DNA of 64,000 nucleotides, taken from assembly GCA_001600455.1 (NCBI GenBank), contig BCKC01000004.1:4204915-4268914 (forward strand), read 5' to 3'. Positions 36,517 to 62,544 of this stretch are shown here, in pieces. Under the pieces are notes generated by a model. That model was not told the DNA's origin, searched no databases, and saw only the letters and a list, made by a program, of their open reading frames with translations. Source of the DNA: Endocalyx cinctus (lineage: Eukaryota; Ascomycota; Sordariomycetes; Amphisphaeriales; Apiosporaceae). Position 1 is the first letter of the stretch; each line of letters begins with the position of its first letter. The position numbers were made by a program, and so were the translations under genes.

Positions 36517-38970
36517 TCAAATAGCCGGTGAGAGGGTCAGAGGTGTTCGGCCCTCCAGCCGGATTTTGTAAGATGCCCTGCCGGCACCATCGGCCGTGAT
36601 CAAGTCTCCGGTACTGAGCTTGTAGCGACGGTTCGGGATCAGCCTATCGAAGCCGAGCTCGAAAGTACCGGCATCCTTTCCGTTGTACAGGACGAGATCC
36701 AGACCTATGCCGTCGTGGCTGTACGCCTTGGCGACCAGCACATCCGGGAACGGCGCCTCCTCGAGGATGGGACCCTCGAGCGCGTTCTGGGGCGGACCGT
36801 CGAGGGTCGAGTTCTTGAGATCCTGATGTCTGACCAAGCGAGCCATGAGGGCGATGTTCTGCGACGTGGCCGAGAGGCCCTTGTTGCGCAGGGCGCCGGA
36901 CTTGGTGGCCTCGACGGGGAAGTGGACCTGGTCTAAGCGTTCAAGAGCCTCCTTGCGGACTTTTTCGTAGCCGAACTCGGCCGCGGTCGCGGCCAGGAAG
37001 GCGTACAGGGGTCCCTCGCCGCCGCGGTAGTTACCAGGGTCCATCTTGTCGGCGCCCTTGAGGTCGCGGACCCGGATGCGGCCGTCCTTGTCGTAGGTGA
37101 CGAACTCCTTGCGGATGATGGCCCAGTTTCGGTGTGCGAGGTGGGGAAGGTAAGAGCTCAGAAGCATAGCGTTGATACAGTCGGTAATGGTACCGCAGAT
37201 GCCGGGGATCTAAAATTAGTACACTCTAGGTTAGTTTTGGATCACTTCTTCTGAATATGGGTAATATTTTGAAGCGGAAATATCTCACAGTCAAGCCAGT
37301 AATCTCGCTACGGATGGGAAGAATACGTCCGTCACACTCGGTGAACTCCTCCTCGAGGGAGCGCTCGAATCGGCTTCGCATCTTGTAGGCCAAGTCACGC
37401 TTGAGGATCTTGTCAGAGATCACCAGACCAGCCATTCCGATGAGGCTTTACACGTATCCAGATTAGCTTAAGAATTCAAAATGGAAGTTTCATTGGTAGT
37501 GATTTTAACCTACTTGCAGAGAGAGTATGTCCAGTTGGGTTCGCAAGGGTAGAGGCAGTAAGGGTTCTCAGTCATGTTCTCGTTAAGAGCATCGGCGAGA
37601 CCCTCGTAGCTGGTCTTGTAGTGCTTTCCATCGTCAACGACAAATTCTAATGAGTTCTTGTCGTTGTACTGTCGGTCGCCGGAAGACATGGCATACAGTC
37701 CAATAGCAGAGCTCAAGTAGCCGGTAACCATCTAGATGAAGTATGTAAGATTTGTGTTCATGGACCAATTGGTAAAACGGAGACTTACGATGTTGTCTTT
37801 CTTGATGGGGTTGAAGTCACTAAGCGTGAATCGACCAAAGATGGATTCCCACTTCCAGTAACTGATACTGTGATTAGCATCATCTTGTCTACTGCACAGA
37901 GCTTCGGACAACTTACGACATGATCTTCTTCTGAAGACTCTTCTCAATGCAGTTCTGGCAAGCGCGAGAGAGGTATCCGTGGAACCCGGGGGTATACAGG
38001 CCCTGGTATAGAGCAAGAACATCCGTGACGCCGTAAAGTTGATAACGGATAGCGCCGGTCTGAAACTGATCAATGACATCGTGATAGCTGAAGTCGCTGC
38101 GACCACTGAGGCCTCGCTCGATGATGTACTGGACGTGACGGAGAGTCTCCAAGCTCAACTCGCGGTCCTCTCGGGGTGGGGCGGGAACTGCTTCGGCTTG
38201 CTGCTCCTTGACGGCTTGAACGAGGTACTTGTTCCTCTCCTGCGCCTTAGAGTAGCCAGCGGCATTGAGCGAACGGGCGTTGCTCATGAGCCAGAAGATA
38301 CCAGAGTAGCAGAGAGCAGGCCAGACCATGGCGACCGGGCCGAATAGCGTGTTACCAGCCATGTAGCCGGCGGCGATAGCGCTACCGAACCAGAGCATCA
38401 ACGGGAAGGCGATACCGCCCATGGCGAACCACGCGAACATGGTCACCGGAAAGAGCGCGATGGTGATAATAAAAGCCAAGGTGGCGGGAACGGTAGCGAC
38501 CGCGGTGAAGCCGGCACCGGGAAACAATAAGCCGAGAGCGGCAGCACGGTACGACGTGCTTTCCAGGTTGTAGAATGCCCATAGTCCTGCTACGGAAAGA
38601 CCAATGTACTGGTAGAGTGTGCGACGCTGATGGTACTTCTTGATCATTCCTCGACCGGCATTAGGGGGAATTAAGACATCTATCCACTCAAGTTAGCGTA
38701 AAATAATTTGAAAAAAGACAAAATTACGTCTCACCTTTCAACGCCCAAGGACCCCACCCAAAGTCACCAACCTCCTCCTTCACGTTCGCCGAGCCATTGG
38801 CTTGCGACGATCTGTCTTTCAGTACTGTGACAGCGAGGGAATCGTCGTCATGGTGAATTCCATTTGGAGCAGGAATCACTTTCGTTAACTATTATTCCTG
38901 TCTTAGTAATTTTGCTCCCGGGAAAGCGTCTTGGAGTAATTTTGGAAGGACTACACACCGTATAGGACAT
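36517..38970 (-). CDS. Membrane-anchored linalool dehydratase/isomerase-family protein
   Basis: Seven exons on the minus strand: 38959-38970 (12 nt), 38735-38888, 37917-38679, 37789-37867, 37514-37731, 37289-37445 and 36517-37209. They give 691 aa with consistent phases. The first intron has a perfect TACTAAG branch site. Residues about 80-190 hold about four membrane helices. The rest is the (alpha/alpha)6 domain of linalool dehydratase/isomerase (Pfam Ldi). It has Y-W-K-W-E-S-I-F-G-R-F, then M-V-T-G-Y at 337-341, and two cysteines in C-E-P-N-x5-C at 399 and 408, the same 9-residue spacing as catalytic Cys171/Cys180 of Castellaniella Ldi. The place of its His129 appears to be Tyr341. The bacterial enzyme interconverts myrcene, linalool and geraniol. 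Expected role here: linalool to geraniol at a membrane. Confidence 0.85.
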
Positions 38971-39746
38971 GGTTACTTCAGTGAATAATCAATAAATACT
39001 CGAATTACCATGTGCGAAAATAACTCAGTATTCGATAATCTGGGAACTCGCTCTATTTCTAGTTCTTAGGGTCGGTGCTATTCGGTGGGATTAAAACATA
39101 TGTCCTATCCGTATCGGTCAATAACGCGGGGAGGCCAAGGGCGGACCGGTGTCTCGGATCGAGAACCATGCCAAATCGACTACCCACACATGCAGCTACT
39201 GCGTCACGTCCTGCACTGCTGTTCCCCATACCCCACAGAGTTACTCTCCACTTCGGACGATGCGGGGGAATAGGGGTAGTGGCCAAAGATATGGTGATGA
39301 ACGATTCGTGGCTCCTCACCTGGTACTAAACAAATCCATGTATACTAGCTAGGAAATTAGAACAAAATCGGCGAGGGATTTCGGCGGACCGTAACAAAGT
39401 CAGGAAATAAAACGTGGTGACGGTCCGCTTTCTGATAACTATCAATTTAGTATTGTGGCGGTGCTAGTTGTTACACAGAGAGATTAGTGACACAAAGACT
39501 ATTTATATACTTCACCAACGAGGGGTTCAATCATAGCTAGTTAGTTTGTATCAATCCATCAAGTTGATACCCCCGATTCAGAGTGTTGGGTGTTTTGTTC
39601 CTTTTCAGTATAGGAGTTATACATATTATATTTTGCCACATTAAACTCAAACTCAAGCCGATCTCATATACTTATGCACCTTACTGACGCTGCCCCAATT
39701 ATCTTTTCCATAATCGCTGTTCATTGTCAATACCACAGAATCCACG
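38971..39746. promoter_or_regulatory. Divergent LDI/ADH promoter with three CGGWCCG sites
   Basis: CGGACCG lies at 39142-39148 and 39385-39391, and CGGTCCG at 39421-39427. The last two form a perfect 9-bp inverted repeat (GCGGACCGT at 39384 and ACGGTCCGC at 39420). CGG with CCG one base apart is a typical binding site layout for a Zn2Cys6 dimer. The sites lie 172-451 bp from the LDI start and 320-600 bp from the ADH start. Confidence 0.75.
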
Positions 39747-41359
39747 ATGAGTGCCACACTTACACACACAACCGCCATCGTATGTCATCCACCAGTTAAC
39801 GCCGAGAGGCAATGGCTTCTGGAGGACATATTAGTCACGGAACCGGACGAATACGAAGCTCTCGTCGAAGTGGTTGCTTCAGGAGTCTGCCATACTGATT
39901 TAGGTTGCGGCACTGCACCGGATGGAACACCCGGTTTTCCTGTTTCTCCTTACCCAAGAGTTCTCGGGCACGAAGGTAATCACTACTCAAAGCTCTGTTA
40001 AATTATGAAAAAGCCACTGATGATTGGGGAAAAAAATTATAGGTTCCGGGTACGTTAAAGCGGTCGGTTCAAAAGTGACCAAAGTTCAACCCGGCGACGC
40101 CGTCCTCCTCTCTTTCTCCTTCTGCACACGATGTCACAACTGCCGATACGGCGCTCCGGGGTATTGCGCAAAATTCAACGAGCTCAACTTTACCGGAAAA
40201 GGGGATGCGTTCAGGGAAAGTAAACGGAGCGATTCGAGGAAGGTGGCTGGAGGTTTCTTCGGCCAGTCCAGCTTCTCGCGCCTGACTCTGGCAAAAGAGA
40301 CGTCGCTAGTGAACGTCAACAGCTTGGTCAAGAGCCCAGAAGAGCTGAAGCTTTTCGCTCCTTTGGGATGCGGCATTCAGGTAAGACTCCCGCTGTCATA
40401 ATCTTATCGTTCGTACACATATACTAATTGATTAAATAGACTGGCGCGGGCACAGTAACAGAACTGGCGAATCCAAAGCCCGATGATAAGATAGCCATCA
40501 TCGGTCTCGGCGGCGTTGGGCTTGCTGCTATAATGGTAAGTATCAGCGAAACTCGTCTCGCGATTGCTTCTCATTTATCCGGACTCTAAATATTCTGACA
40601 CGTAATTGTCTATATAGGCCGCCAAACTTCGAGGCTGTCGAATGATAATCGGTATCGATCGCGTACCCTCTCGGCTCGAATTAGCGAAAAGCCTCGGAGC
40701 CACCCATCTTGTGAACACATCCTCATTGCCAGGAACGACTTTGATCGACGAGATACGGAACATCACCGGCGGCTCCGGAAGTACGATAACAATAGATGCG
40801 ACCGGTGTGGTGCCCCTAATCCAGCAAGGCACTGAGTTTACCGCCAATCAGGGCAAGATGATCTTGCTTGGCGTAGCACCAATGGATGCAGGTTTGGAAA
40901 TTCAAATCACACCATTCATGGTGGTGAGTACCTTTTCCCCTTTTGGCGAACTAGGCGATTCAACCGCGCTAAGAATTATCGGACTTTTTTTACTAACGGA
41001 GTCTATTCCACAGACTGGTAAACAATTGCTGGGAAGCATGGAGGGCGGAGTTTATCCCGAAGATGTAAGGCAATCCAATTTAAGACCTGGTATAGCGACG
41101 TAACTGACTGAAATTGAATCTGATTTCTAGTATATCCCTCGTATGATCCAGTGGTATCGATCAGGCCAGTTCCCAATTGATAAATTAGTTTCATTCTATC
41201 AGGTATGTTCCATCTCGTACAATAACGCGTGGCAAATAAAGATACGAGAGAACCAGGGGACTAACCTTTGAGCTTAACACTGTTTAGGTAAATGATTATC
41301 GAAAAGCTATCAAAGACATGGAAGATGGGACTAGCATCAAGCCGGTGTTATTTTGGTAA
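39747..41359 (+). CDS. Zinc alcohol dehydrogenase (MDR family, aryl/terpenol type)
   Basis: Seven exons: 39747-39975, 40043-40380, 40440-40535, 40618-40923, 41014-41064, 41131-41202 and 41288-41359. They give 387 aa with phases that all agree. The catalytic zinc site is in G-V-C-H-T-D-L and G-H-E. The structural zinc loop is C-T-R-C-H-N-C-x7-C. The cofactor fold has G-L-G-G-V-G-L. The C-terminal part, with G-S-M-E-G-G and E-D-Y-I-P, resembles aryl/benzyl alcohol dehydrogenases, the class that contains bacterial geraniol dehydrogenase GeoA. Sitting divergent from the LDI gene and sharing its promoter motifs, it most likely oxidises geraniol to geranial (inference). The last four residues, V-L-F-W, are not a PTS1. 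Confidence 0.9.
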
Positions 41360-41732
41360 AATCGATATGTGTAATAACTAGCGAGAGCGGATATGCGCTT
41401 CCATGAGTCTGTGGCAAACATACATATTAGCTTTGGCTTGGATGGGAACGTTGTTACCCGATAATATCAATTATGATAATCCAGAATTAGAACATTTTCT
41501 TCGTGGTTCAAACTGATAGCCTATAATGAAGCCTTACCTGAAACTTATTCTATAAAATAATGAAACTTAGTATTTGCACATGCTTACCCCTACGGATTTG
41601 TCAGACACACGATAATCGCCTGGCGCATGATATGGAGATATAGTTCCTCTGTAATCTAGAGTCTAATTATCCTCAGCGCGGTTATGACGCCGTTGAAGTC
41701 AGGGTAGTCGGGAATTGTACAAAGCGAGATGC

Positions 41733-41942
41733 TTATTTTCCCGATTCTCCGAGTAGGATGGCCGACTTCGATTCAGCCCCAACGCGTGAATACGCGTTAT
41801 TGGAATGACCATCTTGACCCACAATCTTCAACTTGTCCGTTTGAGCTGAGCTTGCCGTGATACCTAGGCTAGATGTAAAGCGAAACAAACAAAATAATGT
41901 GACCATAATCGGCTGCGGGAACCGATAATATGCCAAGTCCAT
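41733..41942 (-). CDS. Candidate small protein in the cluster (unknown)
   Basis: An ATG at 41942 opens 69 codons on the minus strand. The N-terminus (M-D-L-A-Y-Y-R-F-P-Q-P, then I-M-V-T-L-F-C-L-F) is hydrophobic and could be a signal peptide or anchor, followed by a polar, Ser-rich stretch. The frame is short and could be chance. It is listed because the start lies only 70 bp from a double CGGWCCG site, as expected for a co-regulated gene. No family recognised, and I found no extending exons. Confidence 0.25.
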   Translation of the reverse strand: MDLAYYRFPQPIMVTLFCLFRFTSSLGITASSAQTDKLKIVGQDGHSNNAYSRVGAESKSAILLGESGK

Positions 41943-42011
41943 CGTGGGTTTTCCTGCCGACCCCCAAAATAGGTGGGGGATTATCCTTGAAATTGGAAAC
42001 TCAAAACCGCG

Positions 42012-42031
42012 CGGTCCGACATGGCGGACCG
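42012..42031. promoter_or_regulatory. Paired CGGWCCG sites, 13 bp apart
   Basis: CGGTCCG at 42012-42018 and CGGACCG at 42025-42031, starts 13 bp apart. The same 13-bp spacing occurs at 60441/60454. Confidence 0.65.
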
Positions 42032-42329: not shown

Positions 42330-44242
42330 CTATTCTACAATATCCTTGTTTACAAATATTGTCTGCACGTTGCAGAAACCCTTCAGGCCGTTCGCGCCCC
42401 ACTCTGTGCCAACTCCACTCTCCTTGTGACCCCCAAAAGGAGCCATAGGTGAGAGGTCGAAGTGCGTATTGATCCAGATGTTACCGGCTTGGACGGATCT
42501 ACCTATTTTGGTAGCTTTCTTGATATCGTTGCACCAAACCGAAGCTCCAAGACCCATAGAGGTGTTGTTTGCTCGGGCTATGACCTCCTCTTCCGACTTC
42601 CACCTAAGAAGTGGGACAATGGGGCCTAGAAATTTGATCCACGTCAGTGTTTTCCTAGCGACACGGTAGATGACCTGTAAAGATGAAAGAATGACTTACC
42701 AAATGGCTCCTCGACGACAATCCTCGAGTCCTCGGCGGGGTTGTCGATGATGGTGGGGGTAACGAAGAATCCCTTGTCGGAGGCTGCGAATTTACCCCCC
42801 GTAGCTACCTTCCATCCCTGCTTCTCAATATCGTCAAAGAACGTCTTGACGCGCTCGTACTGCATGGAGTTCTGTAGCGGTCCGTGCGTGACTCCGGACT
42901 TCGACCCGTCTCCTATGACGAAGTTCTTGACGTGCTTTACCACCGAATCGCGGAATTCGTCGTAGATGGACTCGTGTACATAGATACGCTTCAAGTTGAG
43001 ACAGATCTGAGGTGAAAGTTAGTTAGTGACAATGATTCCTCGTGAATTTTTATGAAAAAGGTGATGTAAAACATACCTGTCCGGAGTTCAAGAAAGCATA
43101 AAATGCGACCTGCGCGATACACATTTAGTAAAGTTTCATATGATGTCACAGAAAACGTAGGTAGCGACTATTTACCTTCTCGGCCACCTTGTCAATGTTG
43201 ATATCAGGACAGACGATAGCTGGGTCATTGCCTCCACTAAAAAAATAGTTAGTTTTTGACGATAATTCTGCAAGTTCACTGCTCATGGGTTGACTGACAG
43301 TTCAAGCGTAACTCTCTTTAATGTCTTGCTAGCGCTCTGGAGGACAAGTTTACCGGTGGTGGTAGATCCAGTGAAGCTGATCTTGTCGATACCGGGGTGG
43401 CTCGTGAGCCAAGGACCGAGCCGGTCGTCTCCACTCAGCGACTGTACGACACCAGGAGGGAAGAACTGCTGTGCCAACTCCACGAGCTTAAGACCGCAGT
43501 AGGGCGTGAAGGGCCTAGCCAAGAATATGCGAGTCAGTAACATTTCATATCTCCGGACTAAAATGGATTAGGGAAGAAGGATGTTTCTTACGATGGCTTC
43601 ACAATAATGACATTTCCCGTAAGCAGAGCAGGAGCGATCTTTCCCGTGGCGAGGAGAAGTGGGAAATTCCACGGAACGATAGCACCTACTACACCGACAG
43701 GAACGTATCGTGTCGTGATGGTACGCGTAGCGCTGTCTTCGATCACATCTTCCGGCATGTGGATGTCGGCCATGCCGCGCATCCACCCGATAGCGGAATC
43801 TGTCTCGTAGTCTGCTTGAGGAATCTATATCTCCAGCTGTTAGAAAAGAAAAACCATTATTCTAGTACATGTAATCGACCTGGAGCTTGAAACTTACGGG
43901 TTTACCCTGCTCGGCAATGAGTAGGTCCCTGAACTCCCCCCGCAGCTTATCCATGGCATCAGCGTAGGCCAGCACGGCCTTACGCCGCTCTTCGTAAGGC
44001 ACTTTGGACCAGATTGCGAAGGCTTTCTTGCCTGATTCTACGGCGCGGTCGAGGTCCTCCTCCGTCGCAACGGGGACGGGTTCCTTCTCCTCGAGCGTCG
44101 CTGGGTTCACGCCATGCCGCGTTTCCGAAGTAGGCGCGCTCTTACCGTCGATAATCTGGATGAAGTTGCCGCGGAAGTCCACAGACGGAGCGACCGTCTT
44201 GCTGCTTGCTTCCGACAAGATGGGGATTGCTGAGGGTGCCAT
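42330..44242 (-). CDS. NAD(P)+ aldehyde dehydrogenase
   Basis: Seven exons on the minus strand: 43898-44242, 43592-43824, 43299-43514, 43176-43236, 43077-43109, 42700-43006 and 42330-42625, 496 aa, the standard ALDH length. Motifs: P-W-N-F-P for substrate/cofactor entry, F-T-G-S-T-T-T-G-K, the general base Glu264 in L-E-L-G-G-N-D, and the nucleophile Cys298 in S-G-Q-I-C-L-N, 34 residues apart as in well-studied ALDHs. E-E-P-F-G-P and [10 protein letters not shown] complete the set. One exon is only 33 nt. In this cluster the expected reaction is geranial to geranate (inference from neighbours). The tail K-D-I-V-E is no PTS1. A CGGTCCG site lies 235 bp upstream of the start. Confidence 0.93.
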
Positions 44243-44969
44243 TTTGTTTTGTTTTCTTTCTTTTTATTATTTGTTTTTATTAAGAAGGTTAAGGAATCAC
44301 GGAATAGAATGTCCAAAAGAAAAAAATTAAGAGATCTGTTGACGATACTGAAGAACTTAACTGATAGTATATGACCAGGTTTATTTATGTGGATAGTCGA
44401 GCTGATAGTTTATATGTGCTATCCGCTTCGAAATTATCACCTGTCTAAATCCTGGGCGGGGCTTTAATCAGCACCGGTCCGAGTAGCGGTTTCACTCGGT
44501 GCGACTCTTCTTTCCCACCCATTCGCCAAGTTCGCTATGCCTCATAAGTGCAACTCTGGGGCATTACTAAGTACCCGGATACTAACCAATCTTGTATCCT
44601 ATGACGTGTCAGATAATTGGGGCTTGGTATGCTTCCCGTGCAATACGGAGAAACAAGGATACGGATATATAGTACCGAACCTTAATTGTGAGCCATCCTG
44701 GAGGCATGACTATATAATTAAGGCGAGGTCGTTAGTAACACTGGCCTATCCTAATCATCCACGTATATTGATTAGATATTCAAGTTACACATGATCCTAA
44801 TCTGAGGGCCAAGTATGTATAGCGATGACTTCGCTGACTATGGAGATATCCTACGTGGCTTCACATCTGATTGTCAGCAACCGCGAGTGTAAACACCAAG
44901 TCTTGATATTTCTGATTACTTATATACGCTAGTCTATTCGTAACATTGGGAACCCTCGATGCCTTTTCG
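44243..44969. promoter_or_regulatory. ALDH promoter with CGGTCCG at 44475-44481
   Basis: The site sits in CACCGGTCCGAG, followed 20 bp on by CGGTG. The rest is AT-rich. An 85-codon plus-strand frame at 44537-44794 has no coding character that I trust. The right end is the 3' region of the cluster regulator. Confidence 0.6.
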
Positions 44970-50955: not shown

Positions 50956-51927
50956 TGTCCTTAGTGAAATTGTTGCTTCCGGAATACATATGAGGACATG
51001 TATTGATGGCCATGATACATTAAAGTCATGTTTTAATTACCAGCGACGTCGCTAGAGATCGAGGCGCCTTCCTAACCTCCCTCCCCACAGACCCATATGG
51101 TGTTCCGGTACCTGAGAGATCCAGTTTATATCGGTCCGCTAAATATCTACGGGCCCGGGGTATTTCCGGGGAGACACTCAAGATATTCATTAGTTATTCT
51201 ATGCCGCTTCATTGGATTGCGGGCAGCCACAGTCTCCCATTATCCCATTATCACCCTATACAATCTTTTAACACACCATAAATTACTGAATCTTAATGAA
51301 AATCAAATATAAATTTCATAGAGGCTTAAATCATCCCTTAGAACGATGCATCTCAGCTAATTTTGATGATAGGCACAATTAACCTCTCCGGGATCTCGTC
51401 CCATTGAGATACTAGTTCTTCCCCGTTCCAGCAAGTGATTTTTTTTTTTTTTTTCATATTCCCAAGCATAGAAATTGGACCTTCATAGACCCAACTCACT
51501 ACTCAACACCATGATTCGTAAGGAGTCGTAGGCTATGATTCGTATGGAAAGGGAAACTTCTTGATTGGCTCACACTTACGGTCCGAACAACGGTACGACG
51601 ATAATGTGGAGCCGTTTTACCCCTATTTCGTCTAGTCCCTCCCCCCCTCACGGTCCGTGAAAAGCCCCGCAATAGATTGGAGACAATCCTTTCGCGTGAC
51701 CCGTAGCTGGTGCCACTGTAAGCTAGGGCATCCATCCACTGTAGAATCCCCTAAACCCCCCGTAAACTCGTGGAAGAGATACTCCTACAGGCCACAGTAT
51801 CTCTCATAGGGGAAAACACCAAGCACAAGCATATCGTGGGCTATGATTTGAGAAAAAAAAAGAAACAAAAGGAACTTACTGTAAGGATCCTGTCTGCCCG
51901 AGATTACCTAAAGCGAATGCGTAGACC
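50956..51927. promoter_or_regulatory. Divergent ligase/Cu-ATPase promoter with three CGGTCCG sites
   Basis: Sites at 51132-51138, 51579-51585 and 51651-51657. The first is close to the ligase start; the other two lie 277-349 bp before the ATPase start, so both genes may be in the regulon. A 17-bp T run lies near 51439-51455. Confidence 0.7.
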
Positions 51928-54753
51928 ATGGCTTGCTGCTACATCGCCGCATTCTGCATCAGCCAACTAGTCAAAGCGAGTCAGTTCTTGGATGTGGGAA
52001 GCAGTATCCAATACAATGAAGATAATGCAAAGGACTCGACCTATCACGCCGACGAAAGTGGCGATCAGAAGAATCACCTTCGTCAATCAAACCCATCATC
52101 TCTGATACTATCTCTCGGCGGTCTCACCTGCAGCGCATGCACAGCCGCGGTCGAGGAGGGTGTGGCGAAGCTTTCCGGGGTGGGAAAAGTCAGGGCTTCT
52201 TTGATATTTCAGCAAGCAACGGTAGTTGCTGCTGAAGGAGCTACTATCGATGAAGCATCGATATTGAAAACTGTCGAAGATCTTGGGTATACCGCTAGAT
52301 CGGGACCACGATCTCCGAAAGAGACAGTCGAGCTACTTGAGCTGAAGGAAGAAACAGCCCGCCTCAGCTCGAGTTTCTCTAATTTAATGAAGGCATCAAC
52401 AGCATTACAAGCTATGTCGATGGCAACCTCTCTGATTCGCAGTCATAATCTAGCTGCGCATTTTGCCCTGTGGTGTCTACACATAACTTCGGTGGGCACC
52501 GTCTTCTATGTCGTCTGTTTCTCACTGTCTTGGATCCATGCGGATGGGTGGAGTCGGATACGAAGAGGAAAATTGAACATGAACACACTCATATCCCTTT
52601 CGACGGGACTGAGCTCACTACTTTCACTCGCGAACTTGCTAGTCGAAGGACCCATCAACACAAATTCGTACTATACCACGACTGTAGGTCTGGGTCTTGT
52701 TATCGTTGCAGGGAGGTACTTGAATGCGCTGTCACGGCGCTCCGCATTCAAACAGCTAGTAAATGCTCATAAGCCGTTGATGGAAACCAAATATGTAAAA
52801 GTATACCCGACTATGGATGTAAGTGAAATCTCAAGCCCTTGATTATTTTTATCCATTGAAACTAAGTATTGGATAGATAGTACCGAGCACATACTTACGA
52901 GCGGGCGATCGGATCGTCATTGAACCATTTACCACCATCCAGTGCGACTGTATTGTGCTAGAAGGTTCTTCCGCTGTAAACGAATCAATCGTCACCGGCG
53001 AGTCTTTACCCACGAATAAGTCCTCCGGAGACTGCTTACTCGGTGGCACGCATAACATGCACGGTAGGATGATCTGCGAAGTGCAGCGGGAACAAGGAGA
53101 GTCGTTCTACTCGAAGCTTATCCAGAGCGCCGCGAGGTCGGGCCACGACGATTCTTCAGGCCACCAGATAATCTCTACAATTACGACATGGTTCGCTACT
53201 GTAGTCATAGCACTCGCCTTAATTGCGCCTTCTTTCCATGTAAGGCCATTAGCGAGTGTGTTACCGACGTATGAGATATTTCGCATGTGGGCCACGCGAG
53301 CCGTTACCATCCTTACGAGTGCTTGTCCTTGCGCACTGGGCTTAGCCATACCATCGGCTGCTGTTACTACTGTTGGTGAGTAACGCCCACATCATGGAGA
53401 TACCCCAAGGTTTATTTTCTCGCTAACGAGTATTGAATGATGTAGCTTCGGCATGGAAGAAAGGCATCCTGATCACCGGAGGTGTCGGCACAATCGAGCG
53501 CCTTCAGAAATCTCGAAGAATCGTATTCGACAAAACTGGGACCCTGACCGAAGCCACGTTAGACGTACACGATCTCTCACTCATTCTAGATTGGCGAGAT
53601 AGAGAAGAAACGGCCTGGAGATACATCTGCATCCTAGAAAGACAAGTGATCAATGACCATCCTTTAGCTCGTGCCATCTTCAGCTCGGGTATGAGGAAGT
53701 TAGGCTCTTCGTGGTCAATAAAAAAGCACATGGGAGAGCATCAGGATGTTACAAGTGACGTTGGCCGCGGAGTTCGTGGAGATATTCGACTCGAGGAAGG
53801 TGAGGCGTGGCGTCGTGTCATTATTGGTAACTGGCGATACCTTAGTGAAGCAGGTGTGGTTGGAATGCCAGGAAAATCTGATTCAGCTATTAGTAGTATG
53901 ATCAGTGTTTATTTCTCTGTGGACGGTAAATATGTTGGATTGCTCCATATTTCTGTAAGTCCTGTACGATGTATAATGCCGTCGAACAATACTGATAATG
54001 CCTTCAAGGACACCGTGAGGGAGAATGCGAATGCCACGATACGAGATCTTAACGCAGAAGGCTATACATGTGGAATGGTACGTCATCCTACTTTTTAATC
54101 TGAATTTCTTTCTAAAGTGTATAAAATTTAGCTTACGGGAGACACTCGAGAAGAAACTACTCGAGTCTCTAAACTACTTAACATCCCTATCCTGGGCTCC
54201 CAAGCGCTGCCAGCCGAAAAACAAGAATGCATAAGGTCTCTCCAAAGTATTGGTGATATTGTGACAATGGTGAGTTTCGTAGTATTTTCGTCAGCTTGTT
54301 TATAACTGATTGTTGGAATAGGTGGGAGACGGCCTTAACGATGCCCCTTCGTTAGCAATCGCAGATGTCGGCGTCGGCCTATGTAGAGATTCGGCGTACA
54401 GCGCTACTGGAGCGTCCGTCGTTATCTTGAATTCGAGGCTCGAATCACTGAATTTGGTCCTCAAGATGGCCGATCTGACCATGAAGCAAATACGATTTAA
54501 CCTTGGTTGGGTACTATTGTACAATATCATCGCTCTGAGTCTTACGACGGGATTTATATCCTTTAGAAACTTTACATTGACACCGTAAGTATCCTACGGT
54601 CTTACGATCCACATGGTATTAAATTTAAAGAAGAGTAACTGACAAATTAACGTTATTTACAGATCTATGGCAGCTCTTCTGATGTCAGCTTCCTCCATTC
54701 TATTAACCCTACAGAGCTTCCGACTCCGAACACAACTAGAGAATTTAGAATGA
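51928..54753 (+). CDS. Copper-transporting P1B-type ATPase (short, one HMA domain)
   Basis: Seven exons: 51928-52818, 52877-53375, 53446-53954, 54009-54077, 54132-54269, 54322-54584 and 54663-54753, 819 aa. One heavy-metal-binding domain has G-L-T-C-S-A-C. The actuator motif is V-T-G-E-S, the transmembrane metal site C-P-C-A-L-G-L-A, the phosphorylation site D-K-T-G-T-L-T, the nucleotide-domain motif D-H-P-L-A-R-A, and the hinge G-D-G-L-N-D-A-P. C-P-C indicates Cu(I)/Ag(I). It is shorter than Ccc2-type pumps and has one metal domain. The N-terminal M-A-C-C could add ligands. Intron 3 is only 54 nt. It could load a cuproenzyme or export copper. Its two upstream CGGTCCG sites suggest co-regulation with the terpenol genes, for a reason I cannot give. 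Confidence 0.9.
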
Positions 54754-55025: not shown

Positions 55026-57486
55026 CTAAGCAACACGGCACAACACTTTCCCCTCCTCTACCGAGTCTCCAGATTTCCACGTCGATTCAAACACACCTGT
55101 TCTATTCGACTTGATCGAGACCTCTAATTTCATACTCTCGATAATCATCACCACTTCTCCCTCCTTCACCTCGTCGCCCTGTTTCTTCTGTAGAGATAGC
55201 ACTTTGCACGGCATTGGAGCCTTGATGTCGGTGTCGGTCGCCAGGCTTTCGGCTTCAGCCATAGCTCGACAGCTCTCGCTGTAGGAAAGCAAACTGTTCC
55301 TCTGAAAAGCGACCCACGCACCGAGGTGAGGGAAATGGCAAAAAACGTCTTGCGTCTGGTGCAGCCAGTCAGACTTGTCTATTGAGGTGACACAGTGCGC
55401 TAGGACTTTCGTACCGCCTTGGCTTATCTCCATGGTCGCAGCAACACCGGAGGATTTTGCTAGATGGATAGATTCCCATTTTGATGAAGTGAAATTGGCT
55501 GCCTTGGAGGCTTGCGGGATCTTTCCTCGAAGGATTCCGCTGATGCGGTTATATTGGCTTGATGGAGCTATTACCTCCACGGAAGAAGATTTTGCTTTAT
55601 CTGCCTCCTCATGAGTAGATAAATCTACGATTTTCGCTTTGCCAGATTCTTTATCTGAAAACGGCGGAGTTGTCTCCCATATACATATGGAAATGTTCTT
55701 TGAAACACTTCCAACGTCGACTTCCGAGGCCGTCTTCGACTTGACCTCACTACTTATGACATCGCATTTCACACTCACTGGATCGTGAATTTGATTGCGG
55801 AAACTGGATGGAATGTTTCGGAAAGGCCGCCATCTCGGATTTTTAGAGCCTTGTAGATGTGAGATCTTACGTATGAAAAGACTCGGTATGATGGTCTCGG
55901 CAAGAGCTTGCAGCTCTACTCGAGGCAGCGGTTCGAGCAGCTGGTCCAGATTTCGCGGGATGAACTGCGTGCTGTATCGAGGGTCTTGAAACTCTGGATG
56001 CATCAGACACTTCTGGAGAAATAGCTGGTTCGTCTTGACGCCCACGCAAGCCGTCTCGGCTAGCACGCGCGCCATCTTCTTCAGCGCCGCCGTTCGCGTC
56101 GGCGCCCATACCACCAGCTTCGCGATCATCGAGTCGAAGTAGATGGACACGGAAGACCCGGACTGCACGGCCGTTTCGTACCTTACGTCCCGTCCGGGGC
56201 CCAGTATCCCGCTGGCCGGGTACCAGAGGCGGACCATCCCGTGTTCGGGGAAGAAATTGCGCGAGGGGTCCTCGGCGCACAGTCGACACTCGACGGCATG
56301 GCCAACTTGCCGGAGGTTCTGGACCTGCGGGACGGATTTGAGGTTACCTCCTGACGCGACGAATAACTGCAAGGCAACGAGGTCGACGCCGGTGATCTCT
56401 TCCGTGATAGGGTGCTCGACTTGCAAGCGCGCGTTGACTTCGAGGAAGAAGTATTTCGACGTCTCCACGTCGAAGACGAATTCTACAGTCCCGGCATTAT
56501 CGTATCCAATCAGCTTAGCGATCTCTAGAGCCGTCGAGGACATCTTTCCGCGTACTTCATCTCTCAGCAAGGTGCATGGCGTCTCTTCGACCACTTTCTG
56601 GTGACGGCGCTGGGCAGAACAGTCTCTCTCGAAGAAGCTGACGGCGTTACCGTGCGAGTCTCCGACGATCTGTATTTCGATGTGCTTGCTGGTCTCGATG
56701 TACTTCTCCAGGATGCAGTCGGAGGACCCAAACGACCTAGAAGCTTCGGACTGCACGCGCGACAACTCGTCTTTCAGCTGCGACGCCTCCCTCACGATAC
56801 GCATGCCCTTTCCTCCCCCACCCGAGGACGCTTTCAGCATGACCGGGTATCCTATATCCGCCGCCGCCTTCTCGAGATCGGCCAATTGCGTGCTGGAACC
56901 GGCGAATCCGGGGATCAGCGGGACGTGCGGTGCTCGCTCGGAAAGGTACTCCTTCGAGCGCCGCTTGTCTCCCAGCGTCGACATAGCGCTTGAACTGGGC
57001 CCGACGAAGATCAAGCCGGCCTTGCGAACTTTGTCGGCGAATTCCGCATTTTCGCTCAGGTACCCGTAGCCCGGGTGCACCGCCTGCGCACCAGACTCTA
57101 GTGCGTATTTGATAAGCAGATTGATGTTGAGGAACGGGTTGACCGAGTGCTCGTCTATGCTCCCCACATCTATGGCTTCGTCTACTTCGGCCACATGTCT
57201 CGAATTCTGATCCCTATGAGACGAGTGATTGAATTGTTAGTAGGGACGATCCGTGAAAAGTCTCGCTAAAATTTACTTACTCTTTTACGTATATCGCTAC
57301 AGTCCGAATAAGTAGCTTTCTGCATGTGTCTACAATTCGACACGCGATCTCGCCTCGGTTGGCAATGAAAAGCTTCTGAATCACCGGCTGGCCAGTCTCG
57401 GCGATGGTGGGTTGCGATGCTATGAAAAGGGGTGGCCGCTGAAAGCCGGCATCAAAGCTCTGAGAGGCTGCCTCACCTACTGCCAT
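55026..57486 (-). CDS. Biotin carboxylase/BCCP subunit (alpha) of a methylcrotonyl/geranyl-CoA-type carboxylase
   Basis: Two exons on the minus strand, 57281-57486 and 55026-57213, 797 aa. After a 35-residue leader the biotin carboxylase domain starts at Q-K-L-F-I-A-N-R-G-E-I-A. It has the ATP-grasp loop G-G-G-G-K-G-M and E-V-N-A-R-L-Q-V-E-H. A linker/BT region follows, then a C-terminal biotinyl domain with E-S-M-K, Lys about 764. It carboxylates biotin for the beta subunit encoded next door. The leader contains acidic residues and does not look like a mitochondrial presequence, unlike typical MCC alpha. No PTS1 or clear PTS2 is present, so entry into peroxisomes would need piggy-backing on beta (inference). 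Whether it is MCC or GCC is decided by beta, not alpha. Confidence 0.92.
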
Positions 57487-58162
57487 GTTGACGGCTCCAA
57501 GGTGTTTCTTGCTGTTAATGAGTTTGTTTTTTCCAACAATTCTTTAAAGGTAATTATTTAGTTTTCTAGCGCCTAAGTATCAAGCTGTAACATATCCAGC
57601 CTTTGAGCGTGTAGGGTCAGATTGATAGTGGTATTTGATTACTCTTTTGGTATTGAAAGTCACATTTCCTAATTAGGCCTGTTTTGAAGATTCGGTCCGC
57701 CTCCGCCTACGACTATTTTGCTAGAATTGTGAACCGGACCGAACGAAAAGTGGAGTTAGAAACTGGAGGACGCGGGCTTGGCAAAATAGTTCACACCTGA
57801 CGCACGCTTTGGGACTTCATGAAACAGCATATACCACAATACTATGTACATAGAAAACTAGTTAATTATTGTTGTTATTGTAGAAGAAAAAAAAACGCGA
57901 TCAAAGGTACCTGTTAGGATTTTATTATCGCCTTTTATCCCCTTATAACCTTTTCGCCCCTTAGTGCGTGTGCATCTTTACCTGACATATCAGTACAGTA
58001 AAATGTGACGCGATGAACGATGCTAATACACTCCATATTATCTTGGGAACTAGTCGCTGAAATTTATCTCTTTTTTTGTAGATTAAGTAGCAAATATAAA
58101 GAAGAAACTCTATCAATAGAATCTACAGATGTTACATAGCTAAATCTTCTATATCATTCGAA
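57487..58162. promoter_or_regulatory. Carboxylase alpha promoter with two CGGWCCG sites
   Basis: CGGTCCG at 57693-57699 and CGGACCG at 57735-57741, 207-255 bp before the alpha start. The right half is the AT-rich 3' region of the beta gene. Confidence 0.7.
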
Positions 58163-60227
58163 TTAAATCCTAGCTAAAACCCTACTACCAACCCCTACCT
58201 CCCTCGACTCATTCACCACCTCTAGGCACATACCCAGAACATTCCGCGTATCCCTCGGGTCAATGATTCCATCATCGATCAACATCCCGCTCGTAGAGTA
58301 ACATTCGGCGTCCTTCTGAGCCTGCGCTCTGAATTTCTCCGTTTGCTGCTTCGTCTTTTCCTCGGTCTGCCCCGCCTTGGCGCCCTGGATTTGCTCCATC
58401 ACACCCGCCAGCTGGTCCGGTCCCATGACGCTGCATTTTCCGGTCGGCCAGGTGAAGATGAAGCGCGGCTTGTACGCGCGCCCGCACATGGCGTAGTTCC
58501 CTGCGCCGTATGAGGCGCCCATGATGATGGAGATGTGTGGTACTTGGGAACACGAGACGGCGGAGACTAGCTGCGCGCCGACTTTGATGATGCCGGCGTG
58601 TTCAGCTTTGGCTCCGACCATGAATCCCGTTACGTTGTGGGCAAATATTATGGGCGTGTTCCTAGCGATAGCATATGTTGAGATCATCTTAGTTAGATTG
58701 AATCAGTTATCAGGGTAACTTACTCTTGATTGCACAGCCGAATAAACTGAGCGGCCTTGGCGGCCTCTTTCGGATTTATGATTGACACTTGATTCGCGAC
58801 GATACCAACAGGGTGACCTGTACATGATCAGCTTCTAACACTTCTTTCACATTTCAGTTGATCAATGGGTGCTCGTACCCATTATGTGCGCCCAGGCAGT
58901 CAACATATTTGTACCAAATTTAGGTTTAAAGATAGAAAGTCTCGAATCATCGACAATCCTCAGAAGAACTTCTCTCATGTCGAAAGGCTTGCGAATATCG
59001 GTGTCCACTAGGTATAGCAGATCCTCGACTGGATATCGAGGAGCCAGGGGCTCCTTTGTCTGATAACTTAGTAAACCTGGCTGCACTTTCAGAGATGCAG
59101 CCCAATCTCGCGCCATACGGATTGCTTCAAATCTAATAATAGGGTCAGCATGAATTCTATCTTTCCAGGTCTCACCTCACTATGAATATACTTACTCATC
59201 CGTGGCAATTTGGTCCGATAAACCTGTCACAGTTGCATGTATCTCGGCGCCGCCTAGCTCTTCCGCTCCGATATCCTCACCCGTCGCCATTTTGACCAAT
59301 GGAGGACCTCCGAGGAAAGCTTGGGCTTGGTTCTTAACGAAGATCGTATAATCTGACAGGGCGGGATGATAGGCTCCGCCAGCTGTGGAAGAGCCAAAGA
59401 CGATGGCACATGATGATTGTCCCTGGGATGTCCGCATGGCCAGATCATGAAATAACTGACCGCCCTTGTGGAAAACTCGGAACTGCTGAGGCAAGAAAAC
59501 GCCAGCCTATACCTTGACGTGTTAGAATTGCCAGGTGAAGTAGTGTACCTGCTCTTCGAACTTACGGATTGGACTAGTGAGATTAAAGGTAATTTGTTTT
59601 CTGTCGCTATCTCTAGTATGCGGTTGACTTTGATCACTGTCCCTGACTGTTAATAAATATGTTCACTATCAAGTTCCGGGGGCAGATCTCATGATAGTCT
59701 CACCCGTCATCTCGTTCCATGCTCCTCCGCTCTGCGTCGGGATATGCGACATCAGAACACAGATTCTCCCGCTATTCCCAATTTGTTAAAAAAGAGTTCT
59801 TCCTTCTGGGAATATACTAGGGCTGGCTCTTTTCTCACCTCACAGATCCGATGCCCGCAATAATATTTCCACATGGCGTTGAATTGCTATTTCCATAACC
59901 CGCGAAAGGACATAGCTCTAGGAAAGGAGAGTCTTGATCCAGAAGCAGGGCAATTCGATCTCGGGCTAGAATGAATAATTAGCTTTGGAGATACAATTAT
60001 TATTAAAAAAAAAAAAAAAAAAAAGACTTAGAAGAACACTGACGAAGTAGCTGGCCTCGGCCTTGATGTCGTGAGAGAGACGCATCATTTCCCTCTGCCG
60101 CTGCATCTTTGCTTGCGCTATCGAATTTCGATAATATCGATCTCCAGCTTTCTCTGTTATTCAAGAAGTTTTGCTCGCGAAGATCCACTTTGGAGTCTTC
60201 AACTGGGAACTGGTGTGATGTCGCCAT
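58163..60227 (-). CDS. Carboxyltransferase (beta) subunit, geranyl-CoA/methylcrotonyl-CoA carboxylase type
   Basis: Eight exons on the minus strand: 60044-60227, 59839-59965, 59704-59771, 59566-59636, 59196-59506, 58879-59132, 58724-58817 and 58163-58661. They give 535 aa with phases consistent throughout. Motifs: R-G-Q-L-L-P-R-D-R-I, G-S-S-T-A-G-G-A-Y-H-P, L-G-G-P-P-L-V-K-M-A-T-G-E, E-E-L-G-G-A-E-I-H and G-A-S-Y-G-A-G-N-Y-A-M-C-G-R. Where MCC beta usually reads V-F-P-D-R-E-H-F-G-R, this protein reads V-F-H-K-G-G-Q, shorter and without the Phe. Loss of a bulky Phe for Gly is the published basis for the larger pocket of bacterial GCC; that this is the same position is my inference. The C-terminus A-R-I is a PTS1-like tail, and there is no mitochondrial leader. 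Confidence 0.9.
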
Positions 60228-60672
60228 GGTGCATTGAGTGGCTTTCAGACTGAAATTTGCTTGCGTTCACCAAAATTATTACAATTAAACTTAATAATAA
60301 TTTAAAAATTGACTTTTTGTCGTCTCGAAATCTCTCGCGATATCGCCAATCAAGTAGAGAGTCCTGCCATCTCAGATCATTTCGTCAGGCCCCGCTTATT
60401 CGCCCTACCTGCTTGTACGCTGGGGATTGGCTAGCTTAGGCGGACCGTAGCGCCGGACCGCACTCTTACACGCGATTTCTATAGCGGTCCGGGTACCACT
60501 AAGCCACTGTAAACAACACTAATCGTCACTTACACCGTCATAGCTACTAAGGATGTTTAGACGAGAAAACGAAAAGAAGCAATAGAATGGTAGTCATATG
60601 AACCTCAAGGGAAGCTCTCTCTAAACCGAATGCTTTCGTAAATGCAATCCTATCTATTTCTCGTCGGTAAGC
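60228..60672. promoter_or_regulatory. Divergent carboxylase-beta/lyase promoter with three CGGWCCG sites
   Basis: CGGACCG at 60441-60447 and 60454-60460 (starts 13 bp apart) and CGGTCCG at 60485-60491. This is the densest group in the window, midway between the two start codons. Confidence 0.75.
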
Positions 60673-62544
60673 ATGGGGCCCACCGTTAGAATCATCGAAG
60701 TAGGGCCGCGCGACGGGCTGCAAAATATTCGCGAGCAAGTATCGACCGAGGACAAGCTTCAATTGATACAGAAGCTTCACGGTGCAGGGCTGAAAAATAT
60801 CGAACTCACATCTTTTGTCTCTCCAAAAGCCATTCCTCAGCTTAAGGATGGGGCACAAGTATTGCAAAGTCACCTCGTTCGATCGCTCCTCCAAGATCGG
60901 ACTCTTCGCCTCCCAGTTCTAGTTCCGAATATCAGGGGCGTGAAGGCTGCTATAGAGTCTGGAGTTTCCGAGGTAGCTGTCTTCGTTAGTGCGACCGAGG
61001 GTTTTAGCAGAGCAAACATTAATTGTACTGTTGAAGAGGGTATCGCAAGGGCTAGGTTGGTCTCGCAGGAAGCTAAAACCCATGGATTGACTGTTCGAGG
61101 GTATGTTCTCTCCATTTTCCGCTATCTATCCTGAAACCTCTGACTGATGTTCTCTCACTAAATCAGATACGTCTCGTGCATATTTGCCGATCCATTTGAT
61201 GGGCCCACTCCTTTATCCGCCGTATTAAAAGTAGTTCAAGATTTGTTCAACATGGGCTGCTACGAGGTTAGTCTCGGAGACACCCTAGGTGTCGGATCGC
61301 CGGAAAATGTCCGGCAGCTTCTCCGATATCTCGGTGAAAACCACGTCTCCCTCGATAAAATAGCGGGGCATTTCCATGACACTTACGGCCAAGCGCTCGC
61401 CAACGTCTGGGAGGCGTACTGCTGCGGAGTTCGAACATTCGACAGCAGTGTCGCCGGCCTGGGAGGGTGCCCGTTCGCACCAGGGGCCCAGGGTAACGTG
61501 GCAACAGAGGATGTGGTCTACATGTTTGAGAACTCCGGTATCAGTACGGGATTAGACCTACCGAAGCTCGTGGCTACGGGAAGTTGGATTTCGGCAAAGC
61601 TGTCTAAGCCGACAGCGAGTCGGACCGCAGCTGCGATGTCGGCGAAGTTTAAGACTAAGAAAGTAGTTCCATCATCCCGAACAGCTCATACTGTAAAATC
61701 GACGCTGAACTGGGTCTTAATGAAAGATACTGGCAACTTATTAGTGCATCGTTCGGGAGCTAACATTAAGATCACGATGAACCAGTCGAGAATCGGGAAT
61801 ACCCTCACAGCCCCGATGACCCGGGACTTGACAGATCTTTTCGTAAGCTTGTCGGATGATCCCACAGTTAGCCGTATAGCAATCACCGGGAACGGAAAGT
61901 TTTTCTGCACCGGGATGGACCTAGGCAAGCAGAGTACGGCGGTTGGATCTGGCGGTTCCTCGTCAGATTCTCAATTCGAAAGACTCACCCGCCTATTCGA
62001 AACCATCGATAAGTGCCCCAAAGTAACCATAGCAGCACTGAATGGCCCCGCGTTCGGCGGAGGAGTTGGCCTGGCGCTTTCGTGCGATTTTAGACTGTGT
62101 GCGAAAAACGCCAGCCTAACCCTCAGCGAGACAAAGCTGGGCTTATGTCCGGCCGTTATCTCCAAATATCTCGTCCGCGAGCTTGGCGTGCCTTTCAGCA
62201 GAGAAGCGATGCTGTTGCCTCGCCCCCTCTCCCCGACGGAGCTGAAATCGAAGGGAGTGATTATGAATATTGCGGATGATCAAAGCCAGCTAGTTGAGAT
62301 GCTGGACTCGCTTCTAGTACAGCTGAAGATTGCATCATCAGATGCTTCAAATTGGTGCAAACAGTTAGTCCGGGAAGGGTGGGTACATGGAGGATTAAAA
62401 GAACAGGATGATACGATAAAGAAATTATTCCAAAAGATGATGGAACCTAATGCCCCGGGCAGCTTTGGTGTCAGGGAGTTTCAAGCTAAACGAAAGGTGA
62501 ATTGGGATGAATACCATAATCTTAAACCATCTAGTAAACTGTAA
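60673..62544 (+). CDS. HMG-CoA lyase / enoyl-CoA hydratase fusion, PTS1 tail S-K-L
   Basis: Two exons, 60673-61100 and 61167-62544, 601 aa. Residues about 1-310 are an HMG-CoA lyase: E-V-G-P-R-D-G-L-Q-N, metal ligands G-H-F-H-D at about 210-214, and the signature G-L-G-G-C-P-F-A-P-G-A-Q-G-N with Cys about 244. Residues about 325-590 are a crotonase: the oxyanion-hole loop F-F-C-T-G-M-D-L, A-L-N-G-P-A-F-G-G-G-V-G-L, and S-E-T-K-L-G-L-C-P-A. In leucine and acyclic terpene breakdown these two activities are consecutive: hydration of (isohexenyl/methyl)glutaconyl-CoA, then lyase cleavage. The last three residues, S-K-L, are the canonical PTS1. The start, M-G-P-T-V-R-I-I-E-V, leaves no room for a mitochondrial leader. 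I know of no described fungal protein with this fusion. Confidence 0.92.

What the first reader, a model, noticed from the sequence alone, without database searches (positions are those of the whole stretch)
36517..62544. Apparent fungal gene cluster for acyclic monoterpenol (linalool/geraniol) breakdown
Seen in sequence: adjacent genes for an LDI-family protein, zinc ADH, ALDH, acyl-CoA ligase, both subunits of an MCC/GCC-type carboxylase and an HMG-CoA lyase/hydratase fusion, with a Zn2Cys6 regulator among them. Established: bacterial Ldi/GeoA/GeoB and Atu/Liu enzymes carry out exactly this series. Inference: the cluster takes linalool or geraniol through geranoyl-CoA, gamma-carboxylation, hydration and lyase cleavage. 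A plain leucine-catabolism cluster would normally carry isovaleryl-CoA dehydrogenase, absent here, and would have no need for LDI, ADH, ALDH and a ligase. I know of no described fungal cluster combining these genes.
Basis: partly seen in the sequence, partly recalled or inferred. Interest (0 to 1): 0.95.

Follow-up and report, generated by a model that had tools for sequence, protein, structure and literature searches.

The report
Fungal peroxisomal plant-terpene (linalool/geraniol) breakdown cluster
A filamentous fungus carries nine neighbouring genes that look like a route for eating plant scent alcohols such as linalool and geraniol, a route known so far from bacteria, here apparently rebuilt inside a fungal organelle, the peroxisome.

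Summary
Evidence favours acyclic-terpenoid over leucine breakdown. (1) The genome has another, MCC-type beta subunit with a mitochondrial-looking leader beside an isovaleryl-CoA dehydrogenase gene. (2) The cluster beta subunit has the published geranyl-CoA-carboxylase pocket: Gly for Phe (103 of 117 readable relatives, the rest Ala or Thr) and no 3-residue insertion (117 of 117). (3) The Ldi protein resembles Thauera linalool isomerase, and in Thauera that gene lies near a carboxylase with the same pocket. (4) Ligase, beta and lyase/hydratase end in AKL, ARI and SKL, which predicts a peroxisomal pathway. (5) CGGWCCG stands in 6 of 6 promoter regions. Against: overall beta similarity is slightly higher to MCC-like than to GCC proteins, and the tree puts it in a fungal group of its own; the lyase is HMGL-type, not AtuA; in most other fungi that could be judged the isomerase gene is not near the core. 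Substrate, location and regulation are inferred, not shown.

The parts
36517..38970 (-). Ldi-family protein, 691 aa, linalool isomerase (Lis) type with hydrophobic N-terminal part; seven exons
   Evidence: model; N terminus MSYTLTKV agrees with P0121; Pfam Ldi 1.6e-76; 35% to Thauera lis ORF; fold of homologue P0121 matches LDI
39747..41359 (+). zinc alcohol dehydrogenase of the benzyl-alcohol-dehydrogenase kind (GeoA-like by recall), 387 aa
   Evidence: best PDB match 1f8f, 9e-74; 39-41% to ADH genes near several bacterial Ldi genes
42330..44242 (-). aldehyde dehydrogenase, 496 aa; NCBIfam names no subfamily at cut-off
44970..47592 (-). Zn2Cys6 transcription factor with Fungal_trans domain, 723 aa; candidate regulator
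48898..50955 (-). acyl-CoA ligase, 579 aa, C terminus AKL; NCBIfam names no subfamily at cut-off
51928..54753 (+). heavy-metal P1B-type ATPase, 837 aa, CPC motif; copper subfamily cut-off not reached; role unknown
   Evidence: (TIGR01525 351.7 bits, cut-off 346.25)
55026..57486 (-). carboxylase alpha subunit (biotin carboxylase plus biotin carrier), 797 aa, no mitochondrial-looking leader
58163..60227 (-). carboxylase beta subunit, 537 aa, GCC-type pocket (VF-HKGGQLF), C terminus ARI, no mitochondrial-looking leader
60673..62544 (+). HMG-CoA lyase fused to enoyl-CoA hydratase, 601 aa, C terminus SKL
   Evidence: (NF004283 over its cut-off for the lyase half)
39142..39427 (.). three CGGWCCG sites in the shared LDI/ADH promoter (39142, 39385, 39421)
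42012..42031 (.). paired CGGWCCG sites (42012, 42025) between the 3' ends of ADH and ALDH
44475..44481 (.). CGGWCCG site upstream of ALDH
48377..48383 (.). CGGWCCG site upstream of the regulator
51132..51657 (.). three CGGWCCG sites between ligase and ATPase (51132, 51579, 51651)
57693..57741 (.). two CGGWCCG sites upstream of carboxylase alpha
60441..60491 (.). three CGGWCCG sites in the shared beta / lyase-hydratase promoter (60441, 60454, 60485)

Best explanation
A co-regulated fungal cluster for using acyclic terpenoid alcohols as food. Proposed steps, all inferred from sequence: the Lis-type enzyme isomerises linalool to geraniol; the ADH and ALDH oxidise geraniol to geranic acid; the ligase (AKL), inside the peroxisome, makes geranoyl-CoA; a GCC-type alpha/beta carboxylase (beta ends ARI) carboxylates the beta-methyl branch (gamma carbon); the hydratase half of the fusion (SKL) adds water; the HMG-CoA-lyase half cleaves off an acetyl unit; general beta-oxidation and the separate MCC/leucine route finish the job. 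The Zn2Cys6 protein probably acts through the CGGWCCG palindromes.
For: Gene content and intact motifs. GCC pocket by the rules of Jurado et al. 2015 (PMC4673880, passages and discussion): window VF---HKGGQLF, PaGCC IF---VEGARGF, human MCC VFPDRDHFGRTF. Of 120 listed relatives 117 could be read: G 103, A 10, T 4, F 0, none with the insertion. Second MCC-type beta beside an IVD gene, second alpha, second HMGL. One Ldi gene found in the genome. Thauera lis has the membrane-anchored form (PMC4791888, passages) and lies near a carboxylase with the same pocket; both subunits are marked as identified by MS in the study of linalool growth (PMC4847356). Window Ldi is 35% identical to that lis ORF, homologue P0121 34% over 635 columns. 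C termini: 113 of 120 beta and 95 of 120 lyase-hydratase relatives end in [SAC][KRH][LMI], 0 of 120 Ldi relatives. Promoter motif; its paired form occurs 26 times in 44.8 Mb, four of these pairs (three places) here.
Against: No activity, expression or localisation data. Over the whole beta chain phmmer scores MCC-like or PCC-named chains above PaGCC (439, 437, 428 and, for human MCC, 416 bits; PaGCC 408), and the own C8 beta is 49% identical against 44% for Thauera AtuC; in the tree it nests with neither. In eight genomes locus numbers put Ldi far from the core, and in Thelonectria olida they lie on contigs of different length; only Colletotrichum kahawae and Clonostachys chloroleuca suggest linkage. 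The His of Castellaniella Ldi is Tyr here (Trp in Thauera Lis). Alpha has no recognised peroxisomal signal. AtuA-family genes lie elsewhere in this genome. Genome-wide the paired motif is no commoner than its reversed control (26 against 23); only its concentration here stands out. No NCBIfam subfamily names ALDH, ligase or hydratase at cut-off. The ATPase has no place in the scheme.
Confidence: 0.7

Rival explanations
1. Same enzymes but a different isoprenoid: longer (nerolidol/farnesol, C15) or the fungus's own prenyl side chains. The core is a general peroxisomal remover of beta-methyl branches and linalool is not the main substrate.
For: The core (beta near lyase-hydratase, locus numbers at most 2 apart in 12 genomes) is widespread in Pezizomycotina, and where it could be judged mostly without a nearby Ldi. 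GCC is reported to use other substrates too (PMC3199775, passage). Bacterial long-form Ldi genes mostly lie without a carboxylase in the DNA held (beta-like in 3 of 80, alpha-like in 6 of 80), though many flanks are cut.
Against: The three bacterial Ldi loci with a beta-like carboxylase have the GCC pocket, and one is from a linalool grower. In this window Ldi, ADH and core share one promoter motif.
Confidence: 0.2
2. A hemiterpenol route: Ldi converts 2-methyl-3-buten-2-ol to prenol, which is oxidised to 3-methylcrotonate and goes through an ordinary MCC reaction, hydratase and HMG-CoA lyase.
For: Every enzyme class fits, and no isovaleryl-CoA dehydrogenase would be needed; the lyase is HMGL-type (NF004283 6.2e-113). 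The bacterial precedent for this route is recalled, from no call.
Against: The pocket is of the GCC kind; wild-type GCC was only very weakly active on 3-methylcrotonyl-CoA and MCC F191G was essentially inactive on it (PMC4673880).
Confidence: 0.06
3. Plain leucine or isovalerate catabolism, with the cluster as the genome's ordinary MCC locus.
For: Databases name many relatives methylcrotonoyl-CoA carboxylase; overall similarity to MCC-like chains is high.
Against: A separate MCC-type beta with mitochondrial-looking leader sits beside an IVD gene, with an alpha-like and an HMGL-like gene elsewhere; the cluster set lacks such leaders and has PTS1-like C termini.
Confidence: 0.02
4. Detoxification or production of terpenols: Ldi and the oxidoreductases only modify terpenols, and the carboxylase core next to them is unrelated.
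For: Ldi and core are unlinked in most fungi that could be judged; for Thauera Lis geraniol to linalool is the thermodynamically favoured direction (PMC4791888).
Against: One promoter motif across all six promoter regions; bacterial co-location of Ldi, ADH, ligase, ALDH and GCC-type carboxylase.
Confidence: 0.05

Closest known systems
Thauera linaloolentis 47Lol linalool pathway (lis, geoAB, atuACFEH; PMC4847356, PMC4791888, passages)
   Same: Ldi-family isomerase with hydrophobic N-terminal part, alcohol and aldehyde dehydrogenases, ligase, GCC-type alpha and beta, hydratase; same pocket signature in beta; lis lies downstream of atuCFE
   Different: Here fungal, intron-bearing, with a Zn2Cys6 regulator and CGGWCCG motif; PTS1-like C termini; in the cluster an HMG-CoA lyase fused to the hydratase in place of AtuA; carboxylase of a separate group; extra metal ATPase
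Pseudomonas Atu pathway and GCC (PaGCC, PDB 5ikl; PMC4673880)
   Same: Gly at the 162 position, no MCC insertion, the order carboxylase-hydratase-lyase
   Different: atuABCDEFGH as listed in PMC4847356 holds AtuA and no Ldi; PMC3199775 (2011, passage) says GCC had been observed only in bacteria
The genome's own leucine-type genes (C8 beta beside IVD, C8 alpha-like, C4 HMGL-like)
   Same: Same enzyme classes for the last three steps
   Different: MCC pocket with Phe and insertion, mitochondrial-looking leaders, IVD neighbour, no CGGWCCG between beta and IVD
Castellaniella defragrans Ldi (PDB 5hlr, 5g1u)
   Same: Fold: the 27 best Foldseek matches of homologue P0121 are Ldi chains; two conserved Cys
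   Different: Shorter (about 370 residues in the crystals), 16-18% identical in the fold matches, His where 102 of 120 relatives here have Tyr, Phe or Trp and 18 were not read

Membership tests
Geranyl-CoA carboxylase (GCC) beta subunit | Gly in place of MCC Phe191 (PMC4673880) | tested here: met
   relatives: 103 Gly, 10 Ala, 4 Thr, 0 Phe of 117 read, 3 of 120 not read
Geranyl-CoA carboxylase (GCC) beta subunit | No 3-residue insertion before that position (PMC4673880) | tested here: met
Geranyl-CoA carboxylase (GCC) beta subunit | Common descent with bacterial GCC | tested here: not met
   Tree of 29 rows: 21 fungal, 4 GCC and 4 MCC-pocket rows form three separate groups, fungal branch 100/100; only 8 outside rows, grouped by me. 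So: should work like a GCC, but filed as a separate lineage
Geranyl-CoA carboxylase (GCC) beta subunit | Carboxylates geranoyl-CoA | not testable with these tools
   needs enzyme assay
Linalool isomerase (Lis) | Ldi domain with conserved Cys pair, similarity over most of the length to Thauera Lis | tested here: met
   (CEP(x6)C in 115 of 120 relatives)
Linalool isomerase (Lis) | Four N-terminal transmembrane helices (PMC4791888) | tested here: inconclusive
   simple hydropathy gives 3 segments here and 4 in the Thauera ORF; the model of P0121 has several N-terminal helices
Linalool isomerase (Lis) | Interconverts linalool and geraniol | not testable with these tools
   needs assay
Atu/linalool gene set | Ldi/Lis, alcohol and aldehyde dehydrogenase, ligase, carboxylase beta and alpha, hydratase together | tested here: met
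   at the level of families, not of tested substrates
Atu/linalool gene set | AtuA lyase in the set | tested here: not met
   HMGL-type lyase in the cluster; AtuA-family matches only elsewhere: two on C10, one on C7, a weak one on C4
Leucine (MCC) locus | MCC pocket, mitochondrial-looking leader, IVD neighbour | tested here: not met
   present at C8, not here
Peroxisomal (PTS1) proteins | C-terminal [SAC][KRH][LMI] (rule recalled), conserved in relatives | tested here: met
   AKL, ARI, SKL; relatives 113 of 120 (beta) and 95 of 120 (lyase-hydratase); ligase relatives not searched; not measured in a cell

The most novel reading that the evidence does not exclude
Pezizomycotina carry an old, functionally unrecognised third lineage of gamma-carboxylating acyl-CoA carboxylase that works in peroxisomes on branched isoprenoid acids together with a one-protein hydratase/lyase, and some lineages have joined it to a linalool isomerase to mineralise acyclic monoterpenols. 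Many proteins now named methylcrotonyl-CoA carboxylase in fungal databases would be this enzyme.
Probability: 0.55. Interest if true: 0.85.

Novelty: new variant of a known kind. Interest (0 to 1): 0.74.

Why it matters
A 2011 study says GCC had been observed only in bacteria, and notes acyl-CoA carboxylases in fungi and some green algae without a function (PMC3199775, passages). The fungal section of a 2014 review names Grosmannia clavigera, on pinenes and carene, as the recent case of fungal growth on monoterpenes (PMC4097962, passage). If the reading is right, fungi mineralise plant terpenols by a bacterial-type chemistry moved into the peroxisome, which would place a biotin carboxylase there, give a testable regulator and DNA site, correct the naming of a large fungal protein family, and show a swap of the key lyase.

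Tried and rejected
Leucine catabolism: set aside because of the separate MCC-type beta beside IVD and the pocket signature. Castellaniella-type Ldi as the model: replaced by Thauera Lis. Hydratase active-site comparison with bacterial AtuE: the pattern was not found in the bacterial frames used, so nothing is claimed. Extension to the right: no pathway gene or motif seen. Other genome places with paired CGGWCCG: 8 of 22 read, chosen for short gaps, all inside stop-to-stop ORFs of at least 170 codons; no regulon found, 14 not read. Haem_oxygenas_2 search: a mistaken query, of use only for the genome size. Histoplasma peroxisome paper (PMC13343957, passages): it names MCC and pyruvate carboxylase as endogenously biotinylated; the passages seen say nothing on this lineage. 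Literature: ten searches; those aimed at fungi showed no title on this cluster among the rows listed (one search listed 20 of 492), and the library lacks most subscription journals; a Grosmannia limonene paper that I recalled is not held. Synteny in other fungi was judged by eye from locus numbers and contig lengths in listings of 120.


Full report
WHAT IS THERE. The window lies at C4:4204915-4268914 of a 44.8-Mb, 15-contig genome that is not named; the cluster ends about 190 kb before the end of contig C4 (length). Named relatives of its proteins among the top rows are mostly Pezizomycotina. I spliced nine genes by hand. A recheck finds each in frame with one stop; 40 of 41 introns are GT-AG, one ligase intron is GC-AG. 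The Ldi gene gained a short first exon (38970-38959) whose product agrees with homologue P0121. Pfam confirms the families, and the catalytic motifs I looked for are intact. NCBIfam places the lyase half and the ATPase over a cut-off (HMG-CoA lyase; heavy-metal ATPase, not the copper subfamily), and names no subfamily at cut-off for ADH, ALDH, ligase or the hydratase half among the rows shown.

ONE REGULON. I noticed CGGWCCG while reading promoters, so the test is after the fact. It occurs 25 times in the window against 7.2 expected. Among all 7-mers, CGGACCG is the most enriched in the cluster's 6237 intergenic bases, 15 against 10 in the rest of the window (about 90 of those bases proved to belong to the Ldi gene). 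All six promoter regions serving the nine genes have at least one site; the next of the 64 palindromes of the same form reaches three. Pairs at most 30 bp apart occur 26 times in the whole genome, no more than the reversed control pattern (23), but four of the 26 (three places) are in this cluster. I read eight of the other 22, those with short gaps; all eight lie inside long stop-to-stop ORFs. The stretch between the C8 carboxylase beta gene and the IVD gene has no site. One pair (42012, 42025) stands between two 3' ends and is unexplained. That the cluster's own Zn2Cys6 protein binds the site is inference.

NOT THE LEUCINE LOCUS. The same genome has a second beta subunit on C8 with a mitochondrial-looking leader (judged by eye), divergent to a gene whose five best PDB matches are isovaleryl-CoA dehydrogenases (2.2e-133, next kind 2.9e-74). 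A second alpha-like gene with such a leader is on C8; NCBIfam gives it no name at cut-off. A separate HMG-CoA-lyase-like gene is on C4. The cluster carboxylase subunits lack such leaders.

THE CARBOXYLASE POCKET. Jurado et al. 2015 (PMC4673880; passages and discussion read) tell GCC from MCC by Gly162 in place of Phe191 and by the lack of three residues just before it, and show by mutation that this residue governs use of geranyl-CoA. The window beta aligns without a gap to PaGCC there. In the alignment all 21 fungal rows lack the three residues, while the C8 paralogue, human MCC, 4q0g and 9tps have them, with Phe. Of 120 listed relatives 117 could be read: Gly 103, Ala 10, Thr 4; three (P0028, P0069, P0096) did not match the pattern. 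Against this, the whole chain scores higher with MCC-like or PCC-named chains than with PaGCC (439, 437, 428, 416 against 408 bits), and identity is 49% to the C8 paralogue (best stretch) and 44% to Thauera AtuC. In the tree the fungal family is a third group. I formed the outside groups myself: four GCC (PaGCC and three bacterial Ldi neighbours) and four with the MCC pocket, two of which (4q0g, 9tps) bear PCC-type names in the PDB. With eight outside rows the root is open. By pocket it should work like GCC; by descent I do not file it as GCC. The alpha subunit's biotin carboxylase part scores higher with Thauera AtuF (46.8%, 423 bits) and the Steroidobacter alpha (41.0%, 380 bits) than with the own C8 alpha (42.0%, 340 bits).

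THE ISOMERASE. Only one Ldi gene was found in the genome. Its family is the long form. Thauera linaloolentis linalool isomerase has four predicted N-terminal helices and an Ldi-like domain (PMC4791888, passages), and the lis locus is among those found (L048). The window protein is 35% identical to that ORF, homologue P0121 34% over 635 columns. Both share CLYPCEPNW, and both have an aromatic residue where Castellaniella Ldi has His. An AlphaFold model of P0121 (mean pLDDT 88.2) has Ldi chains as its 27 best PDB matches. Hydropathy shows three strong segments here and four in Thauera.

BACTERIAL COMPANY. Of 146 confirmed long-form Ldi loci in one-per-species genomes, 80 were kept. Within up to 10 kb on each side, by blastp at E 1e-8 and half coverage: ALDH-like 24 of 80, ECH-like 15, ligase-like 13, ADH-like 9, alpha-like 6, beta-like 3, HMGL-like 2, metal-ATPase-like 1. 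Many flanks were cut by contig ends. The three beta-like genes (T. linaloolentis, Thauera sp. Sel9, a Steroidobacter MAG) all have the GCC pocket. The Steroidobacter locus holds carboxylase beta and alpha, a hydratase, AtuA, ADH, Ldi, ligase and ALDH within about 14 kb. For T. linaloolentis the paper reports atuCFE-lis and geoAB-atuA over 24 kb, with both carboxylase subunits marked as identified by mass spectrometry (PMC4847356; abstract and passages).

PEROXISOME. The ligase ends in AKL, beta in ARI and the lyase-hydratase in SKL. Of 120 listed relatives each, 113 beta and 95 lyase-hydratase proteins end in [SAC][KRH][LMI], and none of 120 Ldi relatives. Ligase relatives were not searched. 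The alpha subunit has neither PTS1 nor a PTS2-like stretch in its first 80 residues; it would have to enter with beta. That the tripeptide pattern is a peroxisomal signal is recalled knowledge.

HOW COMMON. In 12 genomes the beta and lyase-hydratase genes have locus numbers at most two apart, so the core is widespread. Fused gene predictions (P0116, P0254, P0309) point to alpha, ligase and beta as neighbours too. Ldi is different. In eight genomes with both (Exophiala spinifera, E. bonariae, E. xenobiotica, Rhinocladiella mackenziei, Cladophialophora chaetospira, Fusarium decemcellulare, Neonectria ditissima, Cosmosporella sp. VM-42) locus numbers are far apart, and in Thelonectria olida, one of the nearest by sequence, the contig lengths differ. 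In several of these the Ldi is a distant one (39-60% identity). Only Colletotrichum kahawae (P0146 and P0322, both 68975-bp contig) and Clonostachys chloroleuca (P0148 and P0253, both 712062-bp contig) suggest linkage. The lists stop at 120, so absence cannot be claimed for other species.

MECHANISM AND DOUBT. The best reading is linalool or geraniol to geranoyl-CoA, gamma-carboxylation, hydration and lyase cleavage in the peroxisome. Shown: gene content, pocket signature, C-terminal tripeptides, motif. Inferred: every reaction, the location and the regulator. HMG-CoA lyase as cleaver of the larger acid has a recalled bacterial precedent only; the genome also has AtuA-family matches on C10 (two), C7 and, weakly, C4 that might serve. 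No substrate has been tested. My literature searches showed no account of such a fungal cluster among the rows listed, within a library of open-licence papers.

Noticed in passing
51928-54753: Heavy-metal P1B-type ATPase (CPC motif) inside the cluster with motif sites in its promoter; no evident role in terpenol breakdown.
   Followed up: partly
42012-42031: Paired CGGWCCG sites with the same 13-bp spacing as 60441/60454, but lying between two gene 3' ends.
   Followed up: partly
G000:C10:933749 and 1854338, C7:2872504, C4:1118890: AtuA-family (PF07287) matches elsewhere in this fungal genome, two over 500 bits, one 415 and one weak (45 bits); the protein at C10:1854338 ends in EKL.
   Followed up: partly
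15383-17056: HAD-like protein (Pfam HAD_2 below its cut-off) followed by a stretch with an EDGGW motif; perhaps a HAD-type terpene cyclase, by recall only.
   Followed up: partly
24241-27147: Another Zn2Cys6 regulator, in a single long reading frame, near transporter-like reading frames.
   Followed up: partly
33340-35187: HET-domain (heterokaryon incompatibility) gene just left of the cluster.
   Followed up: partly
P0188: Paramyrothecium foliicola protein predicted as ALDH fused to an Ldi domain, which suggests that these two genes are neighbours there.
   Followed up: no
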